Part shown: piece by piece, positions 1-5,621 of the stretch
Layout of the letters: each line of letters starts with the position of its first letter
How positions within the stretch are numbered: position 1 is the stretch's first letter
Source: an uncultured Oscillospiraceae bacterium
GTDB lineage: Bacteria > Bacillota > Clostridia > Oscillospirales > Oscillospiraceae
Assembly: GCA_934659445.1 (NCBI GenBank)
Contig: CAKUHV010000102.1
Span: 1 to 5,621 of the forward strand
DNA length: 5,621 nt
Direction: 5' to 3'
The notes under the pieces: model-generated
Database searches by the model: none
What the model was told of the DNA's origin: nothing
The model's input: the letters and a program-made list of their open reading frames with translations, nothing else
Made by a program: the position numbers and the translations under genes

Positions 1-84
1 TCCACCTATATCATCACGCCCTATAACGTGGACCTGCTGGGCGACCTGATCGACGAGCTGGAGAACAACGGGCTGTACTTCTGA
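1..84 (+). CDS. 3' end of an unidentified protein gene (partial)
   Basis: Frame 1 is open from the window edge to TGA at 82-84 and encodes 27 residues ending in ENNGLYF. The visible tail (residues 1-27) mixes hydrophobic and acidic residues (YIITPYNVDLLGDLIDELE), which looks like a beta-strand followed by an amphipathic helix, so it is probably the end of a folded alpha/beta domain. I do not recognise the family from so short a piece and assign no function. The reality of the gene is supported by its near-exact second copy at 245-328, where one of the two base changes is synonymous (TAC to TAT) and the other exchanges one stop codon for another (TGA to TAA). Both changes preserve the encoded C-terminus, as expected if both copies descend from functional coding sequence. 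Confidence 0.6.
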   Translation, partial: STYIITPYNVDLLGDLIDELENNGLYF

Positions 85-244
85 AATGGCCGCCGGGGCC
101 CCATCGCGGATGGGGCGGCGCGGTAAGCGCCGTAAATTCGAGGGGCGCTGCCCCGAGAATTTCCGCAGGGCGAATTCACTTCGCCCGAGGATTTAAAATA
201 CAGGGGTCCCCGCAGGATGCGCAGCATCATGGGGGGCGGCCATT
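85..244. mobile_element. 160-bp hairpin-rich element with 10-bp terminal inverted repeats
   Basis: The segment between the two 84-bp copies starts AATGGCCGCC (85-94) and ends with its exact complement GGCGGCCATT (235-244). With a 4-nt offset the match continues through CCCCAT. Inside are successive hairpins: 98-105/109-116 (8 bp), 116-121/127-132 (6 bp), 134-139 plus 142-146 paired with 150-154 plus 157-162, 168-174/180-186 (7 bp), 203-206/208-211 and 216-220/224-228. No credible protein gene is present. This layout fits a non-autonomous miniature element or a structured RNA. No transposase is visible, so mobility is inferred from structure only. Confidence 0.6.
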
Positions 245-328
245 TCCACCTATATCATCACGCCCTATAACGTGGACCTGCTGGGCGACCTGATCGACGA
301 GCTGGAGAACAACGGGCTGTATTTCTAA
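245..328 (+). pseudogene. Detached duplicate of the upstream gene's 3' end
   Basis: This stretch repeats positions 1-84 with differences at only two positions (78 vs 322; 83 vs 327) and encodes the same 27 residues and a stop (TAA 326-328). It is offset by 244 bp, which is not a multiple of three. Reading upstream in its frame, a TAA at 194-196 is met before any start codon, so it cannot be translated alone or as a readthrough of copy 1. It is either the original gene end displaced by an insertion at 85-244, or the second half of a tandem duplication. The repeat may extend left beyond the window, which cannot be seen here. Confidence 0.75.
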
Positions 329-360
329 GCAGAACGCCGGTCGGCCTCGCTCCACAAGTC

Positions 361-512
361 GGCAAGGGCAGAGCCCTTGCCCTACGGGCTATTCTATCCA
401 TTGTGTGTAGGGCGCGACGACCCGGCGCGCCGCAAAACATCGGGCGGCCAAAGGCCGCCCCTACGGCGCGTACCATTCGTGGTTCCTCGTAGGGGCCGAT
501 GTCCCCATCGGC
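361..512. repeat. REP/BIME-like palindrome cluster 1 (four units, orientation - + - +)
   Basis: Four short palindromes each have GTAG (or CTAC on this strand) at one foot. Unit 1 (361-385, reversed): stem 361-369/373-381, CTAC 382-385. Unit 2 (407-431, forward): GTAG 407-410, stem 411-416/426-431. Unit 3 (442-464, reversed): stem 442-449/453-460, CTAC 461-464. Unit 4 (489-512, forward): GTAG 489-492, stem 495-501/506-512. The stem sequences differ between units but pairing is kept. The linker between units 3 and 4 resembles the linker at 2565-2586 in cluster 2. I see no gene and no convincing promoter in 329-600; divIVA may depend on upstream transcription or on a promoter I cannot recognise. 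Confidence 0.7.
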
Positions 513-520
513 TCGCCTGT

Positions 521-572
521 CCGCCGCCCCCTCATCCGGCCCTTCGGGCCGCCTTCCCCCTTGGGGTGGAAG
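521..572. repeat. CCCCCTCATCC-type composite palindrome, copy 1
   Basis: The constant left end CCGCCCCCTCATCC (524-537) is followed by a small variable hairpin (GGCCC 538-542, GGGCC 546-550) and then a C-run/G-run hairpin (553-560 against 563-572, one bulge). The same architecture recurs at 2472-2533 and, expanded, at 5340-5544. It ends about 30 bp before the divIVA ribosome site, so it lies in the probable divIVA leader. Confidence 0.65.
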
Positions 573-615
573 ACATTTCCCACCCCTCACACTCAAATCG
601 AAGGAGGTTTTTTCT

Positions 616-1395
616 ATGCTCACTCCCCAGGAGGTATCCGAACGCGTATTCCCGAAGGCTTCCTTCGGCGGCTATAACATGGCCCAGGTGGACGAGTTCC
701 TGGATCTGCTGACTGAGGACTACTCCACCCTTTACAGCGAAAACGCCGTGCTGAAAAGCAAGATGAAGGTGCTGGTGGACAAGGTGGAGGAGTACCGCTC
801 CACGGAAAATGCCATGCGTAAGGCCCTGATGACCGCCCAGCGCATGGCCGACGACACGGTAAAGGAGGCCGAGCAGCGCCGGGACGAGATCATCCGTCAG
901 GCCCAGCAGCAGCGGGACGACATGCTGGCCCACGCGGAGGAGAACGCCCGGGCTCAGGCCCAGGAGCTGGGCCGCCAGGTAGAGGCGGAGGAGTTCCGCC
1001 TGGCCCAGGCCAAGAAGGCCACTGCCGACTATGTGCGGCAGCTCCGCCAGCTCCACGACGACGCCGTGGCCTATCTGGACGGGCTGGACCAGCTGGCCCC
1101 CCCTCAGGCCCAGCCGGAGGAGCCCGCCCCCGCCGCGCCCGCCGACCCGGTGGACGAGACGGTCTCTGACATCGACGAGAGCGTGCAGCGGCTGCTGGCC
1201 CGGGCCATGGACGATGTGGCCGCCGAGAAAGCCCGCGGCGAAGCCCCCGACGGCGGAGACGATCAGGAGGACACCATCCCCCTGCCCGACGTGACCGCCG
1301 CCCAGCCGGCGCAGGACGGGGATGAGGACGACGCCCCTGTCTCCCGCATCGACTTCGGCAGCTTGCAGTTCGGGCGGGACTACGAGATCAAGTGA
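616..1395 (+). CDS. divIVA: DivIVA-family polar/septal coiled-coil protein
   Basis: DivIVA proteins bind curved membrane at poles and septa and recruit division or segregation partners. The 259-aa product opens with the family's lipid-binding segment: LTPQEVSERVF then SFGGY at 16-20 and VDEFL at 25-29. Phe17 matches the membrane-inserting Phe of B. subtilis DivIVA, but the following Arg is Gly18 here. Residues 31-155 are an almost uninterrupted coiled coil rich in E, Q, R and A. Residues 160-240 are proline- and acid-rich and probably disordered. The C-terminus ends in the compact motif FGSLQFGRDYEIK, possibly a partner-binding tail. ATG 616 was chosen because AAGGAGG (601-607) lies 8 nt upstream and homology starts at once; an in-frame ATG at 499 would add residues translated from a palindrome. 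A strong terminator follows the stop. Family assignment is firm; the specific partner is unknown. Confidence 0.9.
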   Translation: MLTPQEVSERVFPKASFGGYNMAQVDEFLDLLTEDYSTLYSENAVLKSKMKVLVDKVEEYRSTENAMRKALMTAQRMADDTVKEAEQRRDEIIRQAQQQRDDMLAHAEENARAQAQELGRQVEAEEFRLAQAKKATADYVRQLRQLHDDAVAYLDGLDQLAPPQAQPEEPAPAAPADPVDETVSDIDESVQRLLARAMDDVAAEKARGEAPDGGDDQEDTIPLPDVTAAQPAQDGDEDDAPVSRIDFGSLQFGRDYEIK

Positions 1396-1408
1396 CGAGA
1401 CGATACGC

Positions 1409-1448
1409 AAAGGTTCCCCGGCATTCCTGCCGGGGAACCTTTGATTTT
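1409..1448 (+). terminator. Rho-independent terminator of divIVA
   Basis: A perfect 15-bp stem (1409-1423 with 1428-1442), TTCC loop, and a following T-rich tract (TTT, GA, TTTT) lie 13 nt after the divIVA stop. This should separate divIVA from noc transcription. The left arm begins with AAA, so it may also act on transcription from the other strand. Confidence 0.85.
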
Positions 1449-1513
1449 CCGCCGTAAAATTTCCGAAAAATATTTCCCCGCCGCCTTTTTCGACCGATCT
1501 CGCGCTTTTAGGT

Positions 1514-1522
1514 TGGTAAAAT
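1514..1522 (+). promoter_or_regulatory. Probable noc promoter (extended -10)
   Basis: TG-G-TAAAAT (1514-1522) is a TGn-extended -10 matching TATAAT at five of six positions, downstream of the divIVA terminator and in an AT-rich patch. No good -35 lies 17 nt upstream; extended -10 promoters often lack one. Transcription would begin near 1529, leaving a leader of about 60 nt. Confidence 0.45.
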
Positions 1523-1544
1523 ATGGTTGTCCCATTCAAAAACC

Positions 1545-1570
1545 GGCGCCCGCCGGAGGGCGGCCGCGCC
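1545..1570 (+). promoter_or_regulatory. GC-rich hairpin in the noc 5' leader
   Basis: GGCGC-CCGCC (1545-1554) pairs with GGCGG (1559-1563) and GCGCC (1566-1570) across a 2-nt bulge. Its right side shares CGCC (1567-1570) with the left arm of the long inverted repeat around noc, so the two pairings would compete. Confidence 0.5.
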
Positions 1571-1582
1571 GACTTTTCAGGA
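1567..1582 (+). repeat. Left arm of a 16-bp inverted repeat flanking noc (overlaps the ribosome site)
   Basis: CGCCGACTTTTCAGGA is the exact reverse complement of positions 2395-2410. Its last four bases are the beginning of the noc Shine-Dalgarno AGGAGGTG (1579-1586). Confidence 0.9.
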
Positions 1583-1590
1583 GGTGCGCC

Positions 1591-2400
1591 ATGTCTGCCT
1601 TATTCAAACGCGGCCCGCTGGATGCCAGCCGGGTGATGTTTCTTCCCGTAGACGCCATTGCGCCCAACCCCTACCAGCCCCGGCAGACCTTTGCCCGGGA
1701 GGAGCTGGACGAGCTGGCCCAGTCCATCCGCGCTCTGGGGGTCCTCCAGCCCCTGACCGTGCGGAAGGGAGAGGGCGGCTGGGAGCTGGTGGCCGGCGAG
1801 CGCCGCCTGCGGGCCGCCCGACTGGCGGGGCTGGACAAGGTGCCCTGCCTGTCCGTCCGGGTGGACGGACAGACCACCTCTCTGCTGGCCCTGGTGGAGA
1901 ACGTGCAGCGCACCGATCTGGATTTCTGGGAGGAGGCCCTGGCCCTGCGCCGGCTGCTGGACACCTTCCACCTGTCTCAGGAGGAGGCCGCCCGGCGGGT
2001 GGGCAAAAGCCAGTCCGCCGTGGCCAACAAGCTGCGGCTGCTGCGGCTGCCGCCGGAGGTGCTCGCCCGCCTGCGGGCGGGGGGCTTTACGGAGCGCCAC
2101 GCCCGGGCCCTGCTGAAACTGGAGGGCTCCCCCCTGCTGGAGCAGGCGGTGGACCTTTTGGAGGCGGACCAGCTCACCGTGGCCCAGACGGAGGCGCTGG
2201 TAGAGAGTCTGCTCTCCCCCGCCCCGGACGCCCCGCGGAAAAAGCCCCTGTTCGTGCTGAAGGACGTGCGGCTGTTTCTGAACACCCTGAAGCGGAGCAT
2301 GGAGCTGATGCGCTCCGCCGGGGTGAACGCCCAGTGCCGCCGGGAGGACCGGGAGGATTCTATCCTGCTGACCATCTCCATTCCCCGGGCCGCGTCCTGA
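1591..2400 (+). CDS. noc: Nucleoid occlusion protein Noc (ParB-family CTPase)
   Basis: Noc is a ParB paralogue that spreads from its own DNA sites as a CTP-dependent clamp and uses an N-terminal amphipathic helix to bring DNA to the membrane, blocking division over the nucleoid. The 269-aa product has the ParB N-domain (NPYQPR 26-31), CTP motifs GERRLRAA (69-76) and ENVQRTDL (103-110), a helix-turn-helix (about 128-153, GKSQSAVANKLRLLRLP) and TERHARALL (167-175). The HTH, the TERHARAL motif and the C-terminal segment DVRLFLNTLKRSMEL...TISIP (225-265) match Bacillus Noc as I remember it better than Spo0J, so I call Noc rather than a second ParB. The membrane anchor is short (MSALFKR). ATG 1591 has AGGAGGTG 4 nt upstream. 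GERR is followed by Leu where ParB usually has Trp or Phe. The gene lies between 16-bp inverted repeats. Confidence 0.88.
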   Translation: MSALFKRGPLDASRVMFLPVDAIAPNPYQPRQTFAREELDELAQSIRALGVLQPLTVRKGEGGWELVAGERRLRAARLAGLDKVPCLSVRVDGQTTSLLALVENVQRTDLDFWEEALALRRLLDTFHLSQEEAARRVGKSQSAVANKLRLLRLPPEVLARLRAGGFTERHARALLKLEGSPLLEQAVDLLEADQLTVAQTEALVESLLSPAPDAPRKKPLFVLKDVRLFLNTLKRSMELMRSAGVNAQCRREDREDSILLTISIPRAAS

Positions 2401-2410
2401 AAAGTCGGCG
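2395..2410 (+). repeat. Right arm of the 16-bp inverted repeat flanking noc (overlaps the stop codon)
   Basis: TCCTGAAAAGTCGGCG contains the last sense codon and TGA of noc and is a perfect complement of 1567-1582. A 10-bp palindrome, ATAGCGCTAT (2415-2424), follows closely. No T-rich terminator is seen directly after noc. Confidence 0.9.
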
Positions 2411-2431
2411 GAATATAGCGCTATCAACACT

Positions 2432-2457
2432 GTAGGGGCCGCCCCATGTGGCGGCCC
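2432..2457 (+). repeat. REP-like unit, cluster 2, forward
   Basis: GTAG (2432-2435) lies at the foot of an 8-bp perfect hairpin (GGGCCGCC 2436-2443, GGCGGCCC 2450-2457). The motif CTATTCTATCCA just after it also occurs at 389-400 in cluster 1, so linker pieces are shared as well. Confidence 0.7.
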
Positions 2458-2471
2458 GCCTATTCTATCCA

Positions 2472-2533
2472 CCGCCCCCTCATCCGTCATCGCCTTGCGG
2501 CGATGCCACCTTCCCCCCCCTGTGGGGGGAAGG
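2472..2533. repeat. CCCCCTCATCC-type composite palindrome, copy 2
   Basis: The constant end CCGCCCCCTCATCCG is followed by a variable hairpin (CATCGCC 2488-2494 with GGCGATG 2499-2505), then CCTTCCCCCC (2509-2518) paired with GGGGGGAAGG (2524-2533). The variable hairpin is unrelated in sequence to that of copy 1 but occupies the same slot. Confidence 0.7.
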
Positions 2534-2539
2534 CTTGAC

Positions 2540-2650
2540 GGGCGGCCAAAGGCCGCCCCTACGGTACGTGGTATTTGTGGCCTCTCGTAGGGCGCGACGA
2601 CCCCGGCGCGCCGCCAAACGTCGGGCAGATGGGGACATCCTCCCCTACGG
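2540..2650. repeat. REP/BIME-like units, cluster 2 (orientation - + -)
   Basis: Unit 1 (2540-2562, reversed): stem 2540-2547/2551-2558, CTAC 2559-2562; its 25 bases from 2540 are identical to 442-466. Unit 2 (2587-2612, forward): GTAG 2587-2590, stem 2591-2596/2607-2612, nearly identical to 407-431. Unit 3 (2623-2648, reversed): interrupted stem 2623-2625 plus 2628-2631 with 2636-2639 plus 2642-2644, CTAC 2645-2648. Together with the unit at 2432 the orientations alternate. The array ends two bases before the parS palindrome. No gene is seen in 2401-2895. Confidence 0.7.
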
Positions 2651-2651
2651 C

Positions 2652-2689
2652 AAGCGCGTCCATGTTTCACGTGAAACATGGACGTGCTT
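2652..2689. promoter_or_regulatory. parS: parS centromere site within a 38-bp palindrome
   Basis: TGTTTCACGTGAAACA (2663-2678) is a perfect 16-bp palindrome matching the parS consensus bound by ParB/Spo0J. Symmetry continues to 2652-2689 with only one mismatched pair (2656/2685), giving a 19-bp half-arm. ParB (3738-4622) would load here and slide outward. The long stem followed by TATATTCTCTCTTT might also hinder or end transcription coming from noc; that second role is inference. Confidence 0.93.
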
Positions 2690-2716
2690 TATATTCTCTC
2701 TTTCCGGGCATACTCC

Positions 2717-2790
2717 TTAAGGCTGCACCGCGCAATTCGGCAAGCAGATTCGGCGAAGCGCGAAGATGCAATTGTGCGGTGTTGCCTTAA
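2717..2790. repeat. 74-bp inverted-repeat element with TTAA at both ends
   Basis: The 21-nt arms 2717-2737 and 2770-2790 are reverse complements at 18 of 21 positions. Each outer end is TTAA followed by GGC (left) or preceded by GCC (right). The 32-nt interior has a small TTCG-GC-GAA fold. It sits between parS and the parA promoter. It has no T-tract on either strand, so it is not an obvious terminator; a miniature insertion or an RNA/DNA structure is more likely. Confidence 0.6.
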
Positions 2791-2808
2791 AAAAGACGTT
2801 CAAATCGG

Positions 2809-2837
2809 TTGAAAAGAGGACGCTTCCTTGGTATAAT
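2809..2837 (+). promoter_or_regulatory. Strong SigA-type promoter for parA-parB
   Basis: TTGAAA (2809-2814), a 17-nt spacer and TATAAT (2832-2837) form a near-consensus promoter, with an additional TG (2829-2830) extending the -10. The start would be near 2844, about 50 nt before parA. The -35 is the right half of an inverted repeat TTCAA-N5-TTGAA (2799-2813), which could be an operator; no regulator is evident. Confidence 0.85.
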
Positions 2838-2895
2838 TGAGAATTGCCACGGATAGAAACATAACGGTATCCGTCGGGCAAGAAGGAGGCACTTT

Positions 2896-3654
2896 ATGGC
2901 GCGCATCATCGCTGTGGTCAACCAGAAGGGCGGCGTGGGAAAGACCACCACCACGGTCAATCTTACCGCTGCGCTGGCCGCGCTGGGCAAGAAGGTCCTG
3001 CTGTGCGACTTCGACCCCCAGGCCAACGCCACCTCCGGCATGGGGGTGGACAAGAACACCGCCTCCCCCAACGTGTACGACGTGCTCATCAACGGCGCCG
3101 ACCCCAAGCGCGGGGTGGTGTCCACCCGGTATGGGGACGTGCTGCCCTCCAACAAGGCTCTGGCCGGGGCGGGCATCGAGATGATCGGCATCGAGGGCCG
3201 GGAAAAGCTGCTGAAAACCGCTTTGGATGCTCTGGCCCCCGGGTATGACTTCATCCTCATCGACTGCCCCCCCTCTCTGGAGCTGCTGACGGTGAACGCC
3301 CTGTGCGCCGCCCAGACCCTGCTGGTGCCGGTGCAGTGCGAATACTACGCTCTGGAGGGGCTGAGCGATCTGCTGGCCACGGTGCGCATCGTCAAGCGGG
3401 GGCTGAACCCCAGGCTGGGGCTGGAGGGCGTGCTGCTGACCATGTTCGACAGCCGCACCAACCTGTCCCTTCAGGTGGCGCAGGAGGTCAAGCGCCACTT
3501 CCCCGGGCAGGTGTTCGCCACCGTCATCCCCCGGAACGTGCGCCTGTCCGAGGCCCCCAGCCACGGTAAGCCCATCTCCGCCTACGACCCCTATTCCCGG
3601 GGGGCGGAGGCTTACGCCGCTCTGGCGGAGGAGGTGGCGGGAAAGCGGACCTGA
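2896..3654 (+). CDS. parA: Chromosome-partitioning ATPase ParA (Soj)
   Basis: This deviant-Walker ATPase works with ParB-parS to segregate origins; its dimers bind DNA non-specifically when ATP-loaded and, in Bacillus, also influence replication initiation through DnaA. The 252 residues equal the usual Soj length. Visible are the deviant P-loop KGGVGKTT (11-18, signature Lys11 and catalytic-site Lys16), the switch region DFDPQANAT with Asp40, Walker B ILIDCPPSL with Asp123, then PVQCEYYALEGL (145-156), SRTNL (186-190) and the conserved tail IPRNVRLSEAPSHGKPI (211-227), whose basic residues contribute to DNA binding in the family. AAGGAGG (2883-2889) lies 6 nt before ATG. It has its own promoter and is followed after 83 bp by parB. 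Nothing is missing or truncated. It is the chromosomal type rather than a plasmid ParA, because the HTH extension is absent and the neighbours are noc and parB. Confidence 0.96.
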   Translation: MARIIAVVNQKGGVGKTTTTVNLTAALAALGKKVLLCDFDPQANATSGMGVDKNTASPNVYDVLINGADPKRGVVSTRYGDVLPSNKALAGAGIEMIGIEGREKLLKTALDALAPGYDFILIDCPPSLELLTVNALCAAQTLLVPVQCEYYALEGLSDLLATVRIVKRGLNPRLGLEGVLLTMFDSRTNLSLQVAQEVKRHFPGQVFATVIPRNVRLSEAPSHGKPISAYDPYSRGAEAYAALAEEVAGKRT

Positions 3655-3668
3655 GCCCGGCTTTCCCC

Positions 3669-3697
3669 GATCGCCGCCCACTAAGGGGGCGGCGATC
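3669..3697 (+). terminator. Intercistronic hairpin between parA and parB
   Basis: An 11-bp perfect GC-rich stem (3669-3679 with 3687-3697) and 7-nt loop begin 15 nt after the parA stop. No U-run follows (CGTTGAAAATTT), so full termination is doubtful; partial attenuation or protection of the parA transcript 3' end is more likely. I see no convincing separate parB promoter, so parB probably depends on readthrough. Confidence 0.5.
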
Positions 3698-3737
3698 CGT
3701 TGAAAATTTACAGCATCACAAATAAAGAGGTGATCCT

Positions 3738-4622
3738 ATGGCGAAAAAGAAGGCGGAACTGGGTCTGGGCCGGGGGCTGAACGCCCTGCTAGGCGACCCG
3801 GTGCTGCAAAATCAGGGGGAGGGCTCCGTTTCTCTGCCCATCTCACAGGTGGAGCCCGGCCTGAACCAGCCCCGAAAGCGCTTCGATCCCGAGGCCCTGG
3901 CCGAGCTGGCCGACTCCATCCGGGAGCACGGCATCATCCAGCCCCTCACCGTGCGGCGGCTGAGCAGCGGCTACTACCAGATCATCGCCGGCGAGCGCCG
4001 CTGGCGGGCGGCCAAGCAGGCCGGGCTGGACGAGGTGCCCGCCGTCATCATCGAGGCCGACGACCGCAAGGTCATGGAGCTGGGCCTGATCGAAAACCTG
4101 CAGCGGGAGGACCTGAATCCCGCCGAGGAGGCCCGGGGCTATCAGGTGCTCATGACCGAGTACGGCATGACCCAGGAGCAGGTGGCCCAGCGCATGGGCA
4201 AGTCCCGCCCCGCCGTGACCAACGCCCTGCGGCTGCTGAATCTGCCGGAGGACCTGATGGCGCTGGTGGAGGAGGGAAAGCTCTCCGCCGGACACGCCCG
4301 GGCCCTGCTGGGCGCACCCACCCCGGCCCTGCAGCGGCAGGCGGCCAAGGCCGTGCTGGACAAGGGGCTGTCCGTACGGCAGACCGAGGCGCTGGTAAAG
4401 GCCCTTCAAAAGGAGAAAAAGCCCAAGGTCAGGAGCGAGGACATGCTGGCCATTTATCTGGCGGATCTGGAGAAAAACCTGGGCAGCCAGCTGGGCCGGA
4501 AGGTGCACATCCAGCACAGGGGCAAAAAAGGCAAGCTGGAGCTGGAGTATTACAGCGAGGACGACCTTGAGACTCTGCTGCGCCTGCTGAACTACAGCCA
4601 GGAGGGAGGGCAGTCCACATGA
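3738..4622 (+). CDS. parB: Chromosome-partitioning protein ParB (Spo0J), parS-binding CTPase
   Basis: ParB recognises parS, closes into a CTP-bound sliding clamp, recruits condensin and stimulates ParA ATPase. The 294-aa protein starts with the basic ParA-activating peptide (KKKAELGLGRGLNALLG, 3-19), then a linker and QPRKRFD (44-50), the CTP motifs GERRWRAA (85-92) and ENLQREDL (119-126), the parS-reading helix-turn-helix (144-170, with GKSRPAVTNALRLLNLP), the GHARALLG motif (185-192) and a C-terminal dimer domain (about 232-286) that has a basic GRKVHIQHRGKKGK stretch for non-specific DNA binding. SRPAV and GHARALL mark it as the Spo0J type, against the Noc-type features of the 1591-2400 protein. 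The ribosome site AAAGAGGTGATC (3724-3735) pairs extensively with 16S rRNA. Its TGA overlaps the next start (ATGA), so the downstream gene is translationally coupled. Length and motifs are complete. Confidence 0.96.
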   Translation: MAKKKAELGLGRGLNALLGDPVLQNQGEGSVSLPISQVEPGLNQPRKRFDPEALAELADSIREHGIIQPLTVRRLSSGYYQIIAGERRWRAAKQAGLDEVPAVIIEADDRKVMELGLIENLQREDLNPAEEARGYQVLMTEYGMTQEQVAQRMGKSRPAVTNALRLLNLPEDLMALVEEGKLSAGHARALLGAPTPALQRQAAKAVLDKGLSVRQTEALVKALQKEKKPKVRSEDMLAIYLADLEKNLGSQLGRKVHIQHRGKKGKLELEYYSEDDLETLLRLLNYSQEGGQST

Positions 4623-5161
4623 GCGAAACGCCTGCTCCCTCCCCCGCCCCCGGCGACAAGGACCGCCGCTCCCACCACCGCCGGCGGCGGCAGTCGGTGG
4701 TGCAGTATATCGCCGTTCTCTTCGCCGCCGCCTTCGTCCTGCTGGGCATGAGCTATGTCATGGAAAAGCGGCAGAACGCCCAGGAGGTGGACGACCTGAA
4801 GAAGCAGTCCAACTCCGCCATGCAGTCGGTGGAGGTGCTGATCCAGGAGAATGAGGACCTGAAGCAGCAGGTGGACGATCTGAAGCGCCAGCTGGAGCAG
4901 ACCGAGTCCGCCCACTTGCAGAGCGAGGAGGAGCTGACCCGGGCCCAGTCCGACGCCGCCAATACCGCCGCCGCCCTGGACTGGTTCTGGCAGATCGACG
5001 AGGCCTATGTGAAGAACAAGTGGTCGCTCTGCCGCAGCCTGATGCAGGACATGCCCGAGGGGCTGGCGGCCTATCTGCCCCAGGAAAGCGTCACCGACAA
5101 CGGCCGCTTCTCCCCCGCCGACCGGTATGCCGAGATCCGGCAGAAGGTGCTGCACGAATAA
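4619..5161 (+). CDS. Single-pass membrane coiled-coil protein coupled to parB (unknown function)
   Basis: I do not recognise a named family. The 180-aa product has a short Pro/Ser-rich, then strongly basic cytoplasmic N-terminus (DKDRRSHHRRRR, 13-24), one hydrophobic segment (about 27-48), a coiled coil (about 50-118, with repeated DDLKKQ/EDLKQQ/DDLKRQ heptads) and a compact C-terminal part with WFWQIDEAY (122-130) and aromatic, acidic residues. The positive-inside rule predicts the coiled coil and C-domain outside the membrane, a topology shared with FtsL/DivIC-type division proteins, though I see no sequence match. ATG 4619 overlaps the parB stop by 4 bp, and GGAGGGAGGG (4601-4610) is its ribosome site, so its amount should follow ParB. 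A role linking segregation to envelope or division is inference from context. The basic tail could touch DNA or acidic lipids. Confidence 0.85.
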   Translation: MSETPAPSPAPGDKDRRSHHRRRRQSVVQYIAVLFAAAFVLLGMSYVMEKRQNAQEVDDLKKQSNSAMQSVEVLIQENEDLKQQVDDLKRQLEQTESAHLQSEEELTRAQSDAANTAAALDWFWQIDEAYVKNKWSLCRSLMQDMPEGLAAYLPQESVTDNGRFSPADRYAEIRQKVLHE

Positions 5162-5174
5162 AACCACGTAAATA

Positions 5175-5215
5175 CCGAATCGAAGCCCAACGGCTATGCC
5201 GTGGGTTCGATTCGG
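5175..5215 (+). terminator. Long imperfect hairpin after the par operon
   Basis: CCGAATCGAA (5175-5184) pairs with TTCGATTCGG (5206-5215); CCCA/TGGG and CGGC/GCCG continue the stem across single-base bulges (G5185, A5190) to a TAT loop, 18 bp in all. It starts 13 nt after the stop. No T-tract follows, so it may be a processing or stabilising hairpin or a Rho-type end rather than a classic terminator. A smaller stem follows at 5241-5248/5255-5262, with one mismatch. Confidence 0.5.
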
Positions 5216-5288
5216 AGAGGCGGAGCAACGGAATGAACGCGCTTTCCCGCCTGTGGGAGAGCAAGTGATATGTAGTTTGCGACGCCGA

Positions 5289-5304
5289 GGTTTCACGTGA
5301 AACG
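5289..5304. promoter_or_regulatory. parS: Second, degenerate parS site
   Basis: GTTTCACGTGAAAC (5290-5303) is the perfect 14-bp core of parS; only the two outermost positions (G5289, G5304) depart from TGTTTCACGTGAAACA. ParB usually tolerates such end changes with weaker binding. Unlike the first site it has no flanking symmetry. It lies about 2.6 kb from the perfect site, on the other side of the par genes. Confidence 0.75.
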
Positions 5305-5307
5305 CCC

Positions 5308-5333
5308 GTAGGGTGCGACGACCTGGCGCACCC
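5308..5333 (+). repeat. REP-like unit, cluster 3, forward
   Basis: GTAG (5308-5311) lies at the foot of GGGTGCG (5311-5317) paired with CGCACCC (5327-5333). This is the same unit type as 407-431 and 2587-2612, but one C-G pair is replaced by T-A on both arms (5314 with 5330), so pairing is preserved. Confidence 0.7.
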
Positions 5334-5339
5334 AAAGAA

Positions 5340-5544
5340 CGCCCCCTCACCCGCTCGTCCTCGCAAGCTCCGCATGCCCCAGGGCAGCCTCTCTTGCCCC
5401 TGCGGGGCAATTCACCTTCTCATTCGCCACGGCATAAATGCCATGGCTTATTCACTCCGCTGCTCGTCCTCTCCCCAACATGACCGCTGCGCTGGGTCAC
5501 GTTGGGGGCCCCAAATGGCCACCTTCCCCCCCGGGTGGGGAAGG
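5340..5544. repeat. Expanded CCCCCTCATCC-type composite palindrome, copy 3
   Basis: The element opens CGCCCCCTCACCCG (5340-5353) and closes with CCTTCCCC (5522-5529) paired with GGGGAAGG (5537-5544), like copies 1 and 2. The middle is enlarged and carries extra hairpins: 5394-5400/5404-5410 (7 bp), 5426-5435/5438-5447 (10 bp, one mismatch) and 5473-5485/5495-5507 (13 bp, one mismatch). No gene is supported in 5162-5621. Confidence 0.6.
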
Positions 5545-5552
5545 CTTATTAA

Positions 5553-5621
5553 GCGGCCACAGGCCGCCCCTGCGGCTTCTAAACATCCGTAATTCCCTGT
5601 AGGGGCGGATATCATCCGCCC
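5553..5621. repeat. REP/BIME-like units, cluster 3 (orientation - +), running off the window
   Basis: Reversed unit: stem 5553-5558/5562-5567 with CTGC (5570-5573), i.e. GCAG instead of GTAG. Forward unit: GTAG 5599-5602 with stem GGGCGGAT (5603-5610) and ATCCGCCC (5614-5621) ending exactly at the window edge. With the unit at 5308 the alternation + - + holds. Confidence 0.65.

What the first reader, a model, noticed from the sequence alone, without database searches (positions are those of the whole stretch)
361..5621. A REP/BIME-like family: GTAG-footed hairpins with changing stems and strictly alternating orientation
Eleven units in three intergenic clusters (361-512; 2432-2650; 5308-5621) share only the foot tag GTAG plus GGG (one GCAG variant). 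The hairpin behind it varies in sequence while keeping complementarity, including a C-G to T-A double change between 413/429 and 5314/5330. Within each cluster orientation alternates without exception (- + - +; + - + -; + - +). In proteobacteria, a GTAG or GGAG tetranucleotide at the foot of a REP hairpin is what RAYT (TnpA-REP, Y1 HUH) proteins recognise, and REPs pair head-to-tail as BIMEs. Finding this design in a GC-rich Firmicute-type genome suggests an independent or poorly described REP system whose stems diversify.
Basis: partly seen in the sequence, partly recalled or inferred. Interest (0 to 1): 0.75.

Follow-up and report, generated by a model that had tools for sequence, protein, structure and literature searches.

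The report
Transposase gene carrying its own hairpins
Short GTAG-footed DNA hairpins lie in opposite-facing runs between genes of a bacterium, and in related bacteria many genes for the matching transposase carry a pair of such hairpins inside their own coding sequence, so the enzyme and the DNA it likely copies would be inherited as one piece.

Summary
Ten strict GTAGGG hairpins plus one GCAG variant lie in the three intergenic stretches (300 shuffles: mean 0.09, maximum 2) and alternate in 8 of 8 adjacent pairs. They are REP/BIME repeats of six stem types in an Oscillospiraceae-like genome that is not itself held.

REP-associated tyrosine transposases (TnpA_REP/RAYT) occur in 60 of 200 genomes of the family. 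The unexpected part is where the hairpins sit. In 58 of 94 transposase genes read, a pair lies inside the reading frame: one before the HUH motif, read sense, and one after it, read antisense. The two copies are identical in 25 of 58 genes, mean difference 1.2 nt against 7.1 permuted. Ten of 11 window units lie within 4 edits of such an internal hairpin. Genes with the pair mostly lack flanking GTAGGG units (9 of 58, against 18 of 27 without it). Dispersed copies concentrate in genomes whose own transposase carries that type, with real exceptions.

In-gene REPs are known for TnpA_REP subclass 2.4 (PMC6006769). The fixed inverted pair and its scars look like a new variant.

The parts
361..385 (-). 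GTAG hairpin unit, type GGCAAGGGC (9 bp, 3-nt loop)
   Evidence: nearest transposase-internal hairpin 4 edits away (L135)
407..431 (+). GTAG hairpin unit, CGACGACC type
   Evidence: 1 edit from internal hairpins of L106 and L122
442..464 (-). GTAG hairpin unit, GGGCGGCC type (8 bp, 3-nt loop)
   Evidence: 1 edit from L119 and L127
489..514 (+). GTAG hairpin unit, GATGTCCCCATC type
   Evidence: 1 edit from L115
386..406 (.). 21-nt linker between inward-facing feet
465..488 (.). 24-nt linker between inward-facing feet
2432..2457 (+). GTAG hairpin unit, GGGCCGCC stem with CCATGT loop
   Evidence: 2 edits from L170, same loop
2540..2562 (-). GTAG hairpin unit, identical to 442-464
2563..2586 (.). 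24-nt linker between inward-facing feet
2587..2612 (+). GTAG hairpin unit, CGACGACC type
   Evidence: 1 edit from L106 and L122
2623..2648 (-). decayed GTAG hairpin unit of the 489 type (mismatched stem)
   Evidence: 3 edits from L115
5308..5332 (+). GTAG hairpin unit, CGACGACC type with the C-G to T-A double change
   Evidence: 3 edits from L106 and L122
5551..5573 (-). variant unit with GCAG foot, GGGCGGCC type
   Evidence: 5 edits from the nearest internal hairpin
5574..5598 (.). 25-nt linker between inward-facing feet
5599..5621 (+). GTAG hairpin unit, GGGCGGAT type (8 bp, 3-nt loop)
   Evidence: identical to internal hairpins of the transposase genes L102 (G004, both copies) and L109 (G214, one copy)

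Best explanation
The window's GTAG-footed hairpins are REP/BIME repeats of six stem types, and related genomes carry REP-associated tyrosine transposase genes, most of those read holding an inverted pair of such hairpins inside their own reading frame; the transposase likely binds the GTAG-footed hairpin as single-stranded DNA and spreads such hairpins as inverted pairs between genes. Shown: the dispersed units, their inverted pairing and their covarying stems; transposase genes of TnpA_REP type; the two in-frame hairpins at fixed places around the HUH codons; near-identity of the two copies within a gene although they are read on opposite strands; their match to the window's unit types; the association of dispersed copies with cognate transposase genes; and absence of the window's noc-parA units from the relatives' gaps that could be read. 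Inferred, from biochemistry on other TnpA_REP proteins (PMC8266576): single-strand recognition, cleavage near the hairpin and strand transfer. Also inferred: the in-gene pair is the reference copy that keeps enzyme and substrate matched, and it is rewritten when a new hairpin type enters the loops. Untested: that the window's own genome has such a gene, since that genome is not held.
For: Window: 10 strict units vs 0.09 in shuffles; alternation 8 of 8, and 21 of 25 in relatives plus window. Covariation: 22 distinct 23-mers, 99.4% of cells paired, 30 two-sided changes vs 7.8 shuffled, score 0.492 vs 0.135 (rows were chosen as hairpins, so the paired percentage is partly built in). Protein: NF047646 REP_Tyr_transpos for 6 of 6 tested, 1 over the cut-off; 4er8 best by sequence (E 9e-14) and by fold (E 2e-8). 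Internal pair in 58 of 94 genes, one hairpin in 9, none in 27; both in 5 of 8 further genes. Two copies per gene: 25 of 58 identical, mean 1.22 differences vs 7.05 permuted, lowest of 2000 permutations 5.41. Flanking GTAGGG units in 9 of 58 genes with the pair vs 18 of 27 without, Fisher p 7e-6. Five hairpin types x 60 genomes: external copies in 9 of 13 cognate vs 39 of 287 non-cognate cases, mean 11.5 vs 1.09, permutation 4 of 20000, or 56 of 20000 among unit-bearing genomes. Orthologous noc-parA gap: 4 of 68 readable relatives have any unit, one each, against four in the window.
Against: Cognacy is imperfect: G125 has 47 CACAGTG-type copies and G168 has 50 CGACGACC-type copies (<=2 mismatches), and the one gene found in each carries another type; G032's own internal hairpins are 2 mismatches from its 48-copy type; G129, G130, G190 and G027 carry no copy of their own type beyond the internal ones. 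Draft genomes may lack genes, so these are not clean refutations. In the first 400 kb of G136, which has several such genes, no dispersed units stand out. No CT enrichment was seen near the foot (27 of 66 vs 0.383 background), although CT (also CA in one system) is the cleavage site in the three studied systems (PMC8266576). No transposition was observed. The profile was built from nine genes of which eight have the pair, so 58 of 94 may be biased upward. Only 1 of 18 new genes from the phylum draw had both hairpins. Three hairpins in the two loop windows had the opposite orientation. The hairpin rule tolerates one mismatch but no bulge: it found nothing beside E. coli rayT, a known REPtron, so flanking REPs of bulged or non-GTAGGG kinds are missed (L204 and L206 have GTAGCG ones).
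Confidence: 0.82

Rival explanations
1. The in-gene hairpins are passive insertions: REPs land often, and only two disordered surface loops of the transposase tolerate them, so they are hitch-hikers and not a master copy.
For: Subclass 2.4 in-gene REPs were described as insertions (PMC6006769). The two loops overlap the least confident inner segments of the model, residues 42-48 and 100-107. Loops gain extra copies (L222 decayed, L224, L225). Some genes have none.
Against: Both sites are filled, in inverted orientation, at about -100 to -138 and +35 to +66 nt from the HUH codons, and the copies match each other far beyond chance. The pair tends to replace flanking units rather than add to them. 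Independent landings would not be expected to stay matched.
Confidence: 0.3
2. The units are ordinary transcription terminators or RNA-stability hairpins that happen to share a foot.
For: They are GC-rich hairpins between genes; REPs elsewhere are thought to act in mRNA (PMC3733652, abstract).
Against: The bases after the hairpin are mostly G and C, not a T run (66 units); both orientations occur in each cluster; the foot is GTAG; near-identical sequences recur inside transposase genes. A side role in RNA is not excluded.
Confidence: 0.06
3. The two hairpins of a gene are kept alike by general recombination between short repeats, not by the transposase; the fused-hairpin deletions are slippage between short direct repeats.
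For: A palindrome and its inverted copy are also direct repeats, so slippage can give the scars in L218 and L220. This needs no enzyme.
Against: Does not by itself explain type switching to unrelated stems (L122 against its sisters L115 and L094) nor L224, where an old broken hairpin is followed by two in-frame hairpins of another type.
Confidence: 0.35

Closest known systems
TnpA_REP subclass 2.4 / RAYT group 4 (Quentin et al. 2018, PMC6006769)
   Same: HuH of NHVH type, WQ, YIxxNP, GT[AG]G-footed REPs, REPs inside the tnpA_REP gene without breaking the frame
   Different: They report flanking REPs plus insertions generally between HuH and Y, in Cyanobacteria, Bacteroidetes and various phyla. 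Here a matched inverted pair brackets the HUH codons, flanking GTAGGG units are mostly absent, and the hosts are Oscillospiraceae. Their supplementary figure S10 could not be read, so a pair may be shown there.
GTAG REP / BIME families (Di Nocera et al. 2013, PMC3733652)
   Same: 20-40 nt palindromes with a GTAG end, varying stems, inverted pairs, GTAG sometimes supplying a stop codon (seen at the miaB-like gene in L243)
   Different: Their GTAG families are in Proteobacteria, Cyanobacteria, Chloroflexi and PVC; RAYT genes there are flanked by REPs or TIRs, with no in-RAYT pair in the sections read
Group 3 REPtron Sm of Stenotrophomonas (Corneloup et al. 2021, PMC8266576)
   Same: REP of 23 nt: GTAG + 8-bp perfect stem + 3-nt loop, the format of the 23-mers here
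   Different: Different protein group; the REPtron has REPs around the gene
REPINs of Pseudomonas fluorescens (Bertels & Rainey 2011, PMC3116915)
   Same: Inverted REP doublets as the likely mobile unit, tied to a RAYT; the commonest spacing there is 71 bp, and the pairs with inward-facing feet here span 71-73 bp (361-431, 442-514, 2540-2612, 5551-5621), though the two measures are not defined alike
   Different: Their REPs lie in DNA outside the RAYT gene (passages read)
IS200/IS605 elements
   Same: Y1 HUH fold, subterminal hairpins
   Different: The strongest PF01797 hits in the same relatives (L081-L083, IS200-like by my reading) carry no GTAG hairpin

Membership tests
REP/BIME (GTAG superfamily) | 20-40 nt palindrome with GTAG directly at the 5' foot | tested here: met
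   10 strict units in the window, 0.09 expected
REP/BIME (GTAG superfamily) | many copies, intergenic, in inverted pairs | tested here: met
   window units all intergenic; 21 of 25 close pairs opposite; up to 50 copies of one type in a relative. Copy number in the window's own genome not testable
REP/BIME (GTAG superfamily) | stems covary | tested here: met
REP/BIME (GTAG superfamily) | associated tnpA_REP gene | tested here: met
   in relatives; not testable in the window's own genome
TnpA_REP / RAYT | Y1 HUH protein of REP-associated type | tested here: met
   NF047646 for 6 of 6, but 5 of 6 score under its cut-off of 80 bits (69-73); 4er8 best hit
TnpA_REP subclass 2.4 | NH[IFV]H, WQ, YIxNNP motifs | tested here: met
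   alignment of 9 proteins and consensus of 87; the fourth place of YIxNNP is not a constant N here
TnpA_REP subclass 2.4 | REP inside the gene, in frame | tested here: met
TnpA_REP subclass 2.4 | placement by the published subclass HMM or tree | not testable with these tools
   the HMMs of PMC6006769 are not held
REPtron (RAYT flanked by REPs) | REPs on both sides of the gene | tested here: not met
   any flanking GTAGGG unit within 400 nt in 9 of 58 genes with the internal pair; genes without it have one in 18 of 27. Bulged REPs would be missed by the rule (E. coli control)
REP/BIME (GTAG superfamily) | recognition and cleavage by TnpA_REP | not testable with these tools
   needs purified protein

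The most novel reading that the evidence does not exclude
A self-templating REPtron: the transposase gene is its own substrate library. One 23-26 nt DNA word, read sense in one loop and antisense in another, brackets the catalytic HUH codons, is the master copy for the repeats scattered over the genome, is rewritten in concert when a new hairpin type invades the loops, and lets the catalytic core drop out as a unit, leaving one double-footed hairpin. Enzyme and target would then be inherited as one locus, driving rapid stem diversification.
Probability: 0.35. Interest if true: 0.82.

Novelty: new variant of a known kind. Interest (0 to 1): 0.64.

Why it matters
How REPs spread, and how a RAYT and its REP stay matched while both diverge, is unresolved; [quoted passage not shown] A family in which the substrate pair is written inside the enzyme's gene makes co-evolution directly readable from sequence: each gene states its own predicted substrate (48 distinct loop-1 hairpins among 58 genes), and apparent type switches and deletion scars are preserved. 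It also extends GTAG REPs to Oscillospiraceae, and offers an explanation for the paired variable peptides (VGADIIRP with GRMISAPT, RRGDPCGRP with RATARVAPT) seen in homologs from the protein database.

Tried and rejected
Whole-genome test in the window's own genome: not possible. IS200-like transposases as the partner: rejected, since the strongest hits L081-L083 lack GTAG hairpins (L084 and L085 have one non-GTAGGG hairpin each). G136 as a showcase genome: the first 400 kb gave 1 GTAGGG hairpin, like the 0-2 in five controls. A single vertical origin at each shared locus: the tree gives 3 changes for the S1 locus and 4 for S4, so orthology with switching is supported only in parts, e.g. L103, L116, L115, L122 and L094 with support 97/83. 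Empty-site analysis at a miaB-mutS-like junction (gene names by my reading): of 26 relatives' loci, 5 carry a transposase HUH motif there, 13 have a gap of 30-210 nt, 6 a longer gap without the motif, and 2 could not be judged. The near relatives L241 and L242 keep what looks like an eroded 3' end, so loss fits better than fresh insertion, and no hairpin-bounded gene insertion was shown. CT cleavage dinucleotide next to the foot: not enriched. Reversed-sequence control: uninformative by symmetry, not used. E. coli rayT as a positive control for flanking REPs: my rule, which allows no bulge, found none. Literature: in the listings of nine searches I saw no report of the in-gene inverted pair; the library lacks most subscription journals, and Bertels, Gallie & Rainey 2017 did not come up.

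Rows dropped: the phylum draw listed 21 places; 18 were counted (L102 and L195 repeat family genes, L209 is a fragment). Of the places listed, 70 were counted, and 20 further stretches were fetched (12 read, 8); the rest were not examined. In one search, 2 of 76 genes (L144, L164, at contig ends) were lost, probably to a slip in the script's indexing there; one search counts them as 'both'. L158's upstream hairpin lies outside the frame: one search counts it in 'both' (56 of 74), as 'one'.
Full report
WHAT IS IN THE WINDOW. The window carries a DivIVA-like gene (616-1395), a Noc/ParB-like gene (1591-2400), parA (2896-3654), parB (3738-4622) and a coiled-coil protein (4619-5161). Its parB relatives reach about 81% identity and are Flintibacter, Lawsonibacter, Flavonifractor and Pseudoflavonifractor-like Oscillospiraceae. 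The window's own genome is not held. Ten meet a strict rule; 300 dinucleotide shuffles give 0.09 on average and never more than 2. Neighbours alternate in 8 of 8 pairs. Where two feet face each other the gap is 21, 24, 24 and 25 nt, so such pairs span 71-73 bp. In 80 relatives' loci plus the window (1.31 Mb) there are 80 units against 7-17 in five Markov controls, and 21 of 25 neighbours within 150 bp are opposite. At the orthologous noc-parA gap only 4 of 68 readable relatives have any unit, one each, against four in the window. The units therefore look like lineage-specific arrivals.

STEMS. The 11 units fall into six stem types. For 22 distinct 23-mers (21 from transposase loci, one from the window), 99.4% of stem cells pair, with 30 two-sided changes against 7.8 in shuffles and a covariation score of 0.492 against 0.135. 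The rows were chosen because they are hairpins, so the two-sided changes are the informative part. The outer five pairs hardly vary; the inner three pairs and the loop define the type.

THE PROTEIN. Searching 40 relatives' genomes for PF01797 gave matches in 16. The strongest intact ones, L081-L083, look like IS200 transposases and have no GTAG hairpin. Nine weaker ones (L090, L092-L099) are frames of 165-231 residues; eight of the nine carry an inverted pair of GTAG hairpins within the frame, and L099 has another layout. Six tested proteins all match NCBIfam REP_Tyr_transpos, one of them above the cut-off, and the nearest solved structure by sequence and by fold is TnpA_REP bound to a REP hairpin, 4er8. 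A profile of the nine finds genes in 60 of 200 genomes of the family at E 1e-10, in 20 of 299 from the phylum draw at E 1e-15, two of which are family genomes already seen, and 6728 predicted proteins among the 7995 scored.

THE HAIRPINS ARE INSIDE THE GENE. Of 94 genes read, 58 have both hairpins in frame, 9 have one and 27 have none. By source: 52, 7 and 11 of 70 from the family draw; 5, 0 and 1 of 6 from near relatives; 1, 2 and 15 of 18 from the phylum draw. Eight further family genes gave 5, 2 and 1. One hairpin begins about 100-138 nt before the HUH codons and is read sense; the other begins 35-66 nt after them and is read antisense; three hairpins in those stretches face the other way. 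In the predicted structure (mean pLDDT 76.5) the two least confident inner segments, residues 42-48 and 100-107, overlap the two hairpin-coded loops. The two copies in a gene are identical in 25 of 58 genes. The mean difference is 1.22 nt; permuting partners within length classes gives 7.05 and never below 5.41 in 2000 trials. Because one copy is read sense and the other antisense, they encode unrelated peptides (for instance VGADIIRP and GRMISAPT), so likeness of the two peptides cannot explain the match.

INSIDE INSTEAD OF OUTSIDE. Genes with the internal pair have a flanking GTAGGG unit within 400 nt in 9 of 58 cases, genes without it in 18 of 27, genes with one hairpin in 6 of 9 (Fisher p 7e-6 for the first two). 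Among the phylum-draw genes many are conventional REPtrons with flanking REPs. This is a contrast between groups of related genes, not between independent events, and bulged REPs are not seen by the rule (it found none beside E. coli rayT).

LINK TO THE WINDOW. Ten of the 11 window units lie within 0-4 edits of an internal hairpin; the GCAG unit is 5 away. The unit at 5599-5621 is identical to both internal hairpins of one gene, L102, and to one of those of L109. Across five hairpin types and 60 genomes, external copies occur in 9 of 13 genome-type pairs where the genome's own gene carries the type within the mismatch limit, and in 39 of 287 where it does not (mean 11.5 against 1.09; permutation 4 of 20000; 56 of 20000 when restricted to unit-bearing genomes). 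The exceptions are real: 47 copies in G125 and 50 in G168 without a cognate gene found, and four genomes with no copy of their own type beyond the internal ones. Draft assemblies, lost genes and cross-recognition are all possible; none was tested.

SWITCHING AND SCARS. Many of these genes sit at loci shared between species, for example between miaB-like and mutS-like genes (names by my reading), with different hairpin types in different species. In one supported group (99/93) L122 carries the CGACGACC type in both loops while its sisters L115 and L094 carry GATGTCC-like types. L103 and L116 differ by the same A-T/G-C exchange in both hairpins. L224 has an old broken hairpin followed by two in-frame hairpins of another type in loop 1, and the new type in loop 2. 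Two degenerate genes, L218 and L220, have lost the stretch between the hairpins, leaving one double-footed GTAG...CTAC hairpin; L219 and L221 have similar gaps with decayed scars. L225 has three antisense copies in loop 2, and L222 has decayed extra copies there. Simple slippage could make the scars.

HOW IT LIKELY WORKS. Inferred from work on E. coli, Stenotrophomonas and Marinomonas proteins (PMC8266576, passages read): the enzyme binds the GTAG-footed hairpin in single-stranded DNA, cuts nearby, and transfers or primes from the freed end. I found no CT enrichment by the foot (27 of 66 against 0.383 background), so the cut site is open. The most likely account is that the in-gene pair keeps enzyme and substrate matched, and that dispersed units are its copies.

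AGAINST KNOWN SYSTEMS. [quoted passage not shown] The motifs here fit that subclass; its HMMs could not be run. PMC3733652 (outline and abstract, part 1 of 8 of the text, sections 15 and 16) lists GTAG families in Proteobacteria, Cyanobacteria, Chloroflexi and PVC. PMC3116915 was read in passages. What I did not find described is the matched inverted pair bracketing the HUH codons, the rarity of flanking units, and the Oscillospiraceae hosts (listings of nine searches). I file it as a new variant of a known kind.

Noticed in passing
window 1-340: An 84-bp gene tail (ending GLYF) is repeated at 1-84 and 245-328 around a ~160-bp insert whose ends are AATGGCCGCC and GGCGGCCATT; possibly an element that rebuilds the gene end it enters.
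   Followed up: no
window 529-537, 2477-2533, 5344-5544: A second repeat family (CCCTCATCC ... CACCTTCCCC ... GGGGAAGG) lies among the GTAG units, making the clusters mosaic.
   Followed up: no
window 2652-2689 and 5291-5303: TTTCACGTGAAAC palindromes, which look like parS sites (consensus recalled), lie right beside REP clusters.
   Followed up: no
window 616-2400: The DivIVA-like gene beside noc was not found adjacent to noc in any of the 80 relatives' loci by a simple best-hit test.
   Followed up: partly
L218, L220 (also L219, L221): Transposase remnants lacking the HUH-coding stretch between the hairpins, with one fused double-foot hairpin left in two of them.
   Followed up: partly
L225: Three tandem in-gene antisense hairpins at 51-bp spacing in loop 2.
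   Followed up: no
L243 (G026, miaB-like gene): A third hairpin lies at the end of the upstream gene and its GTAG supplies the stop codon.
   Followed up: no
L216 (MT839559.1): A human-faecal record labelled bacteriophage carries a transposase gene with a perfect internal pair.
   Followed up: no
66 dispersed units in 80 relatives' loci plus the window: The base just 3' of the hairpin is G in 67% and the next C in 56%; meaning unknown.
   Followed up: no
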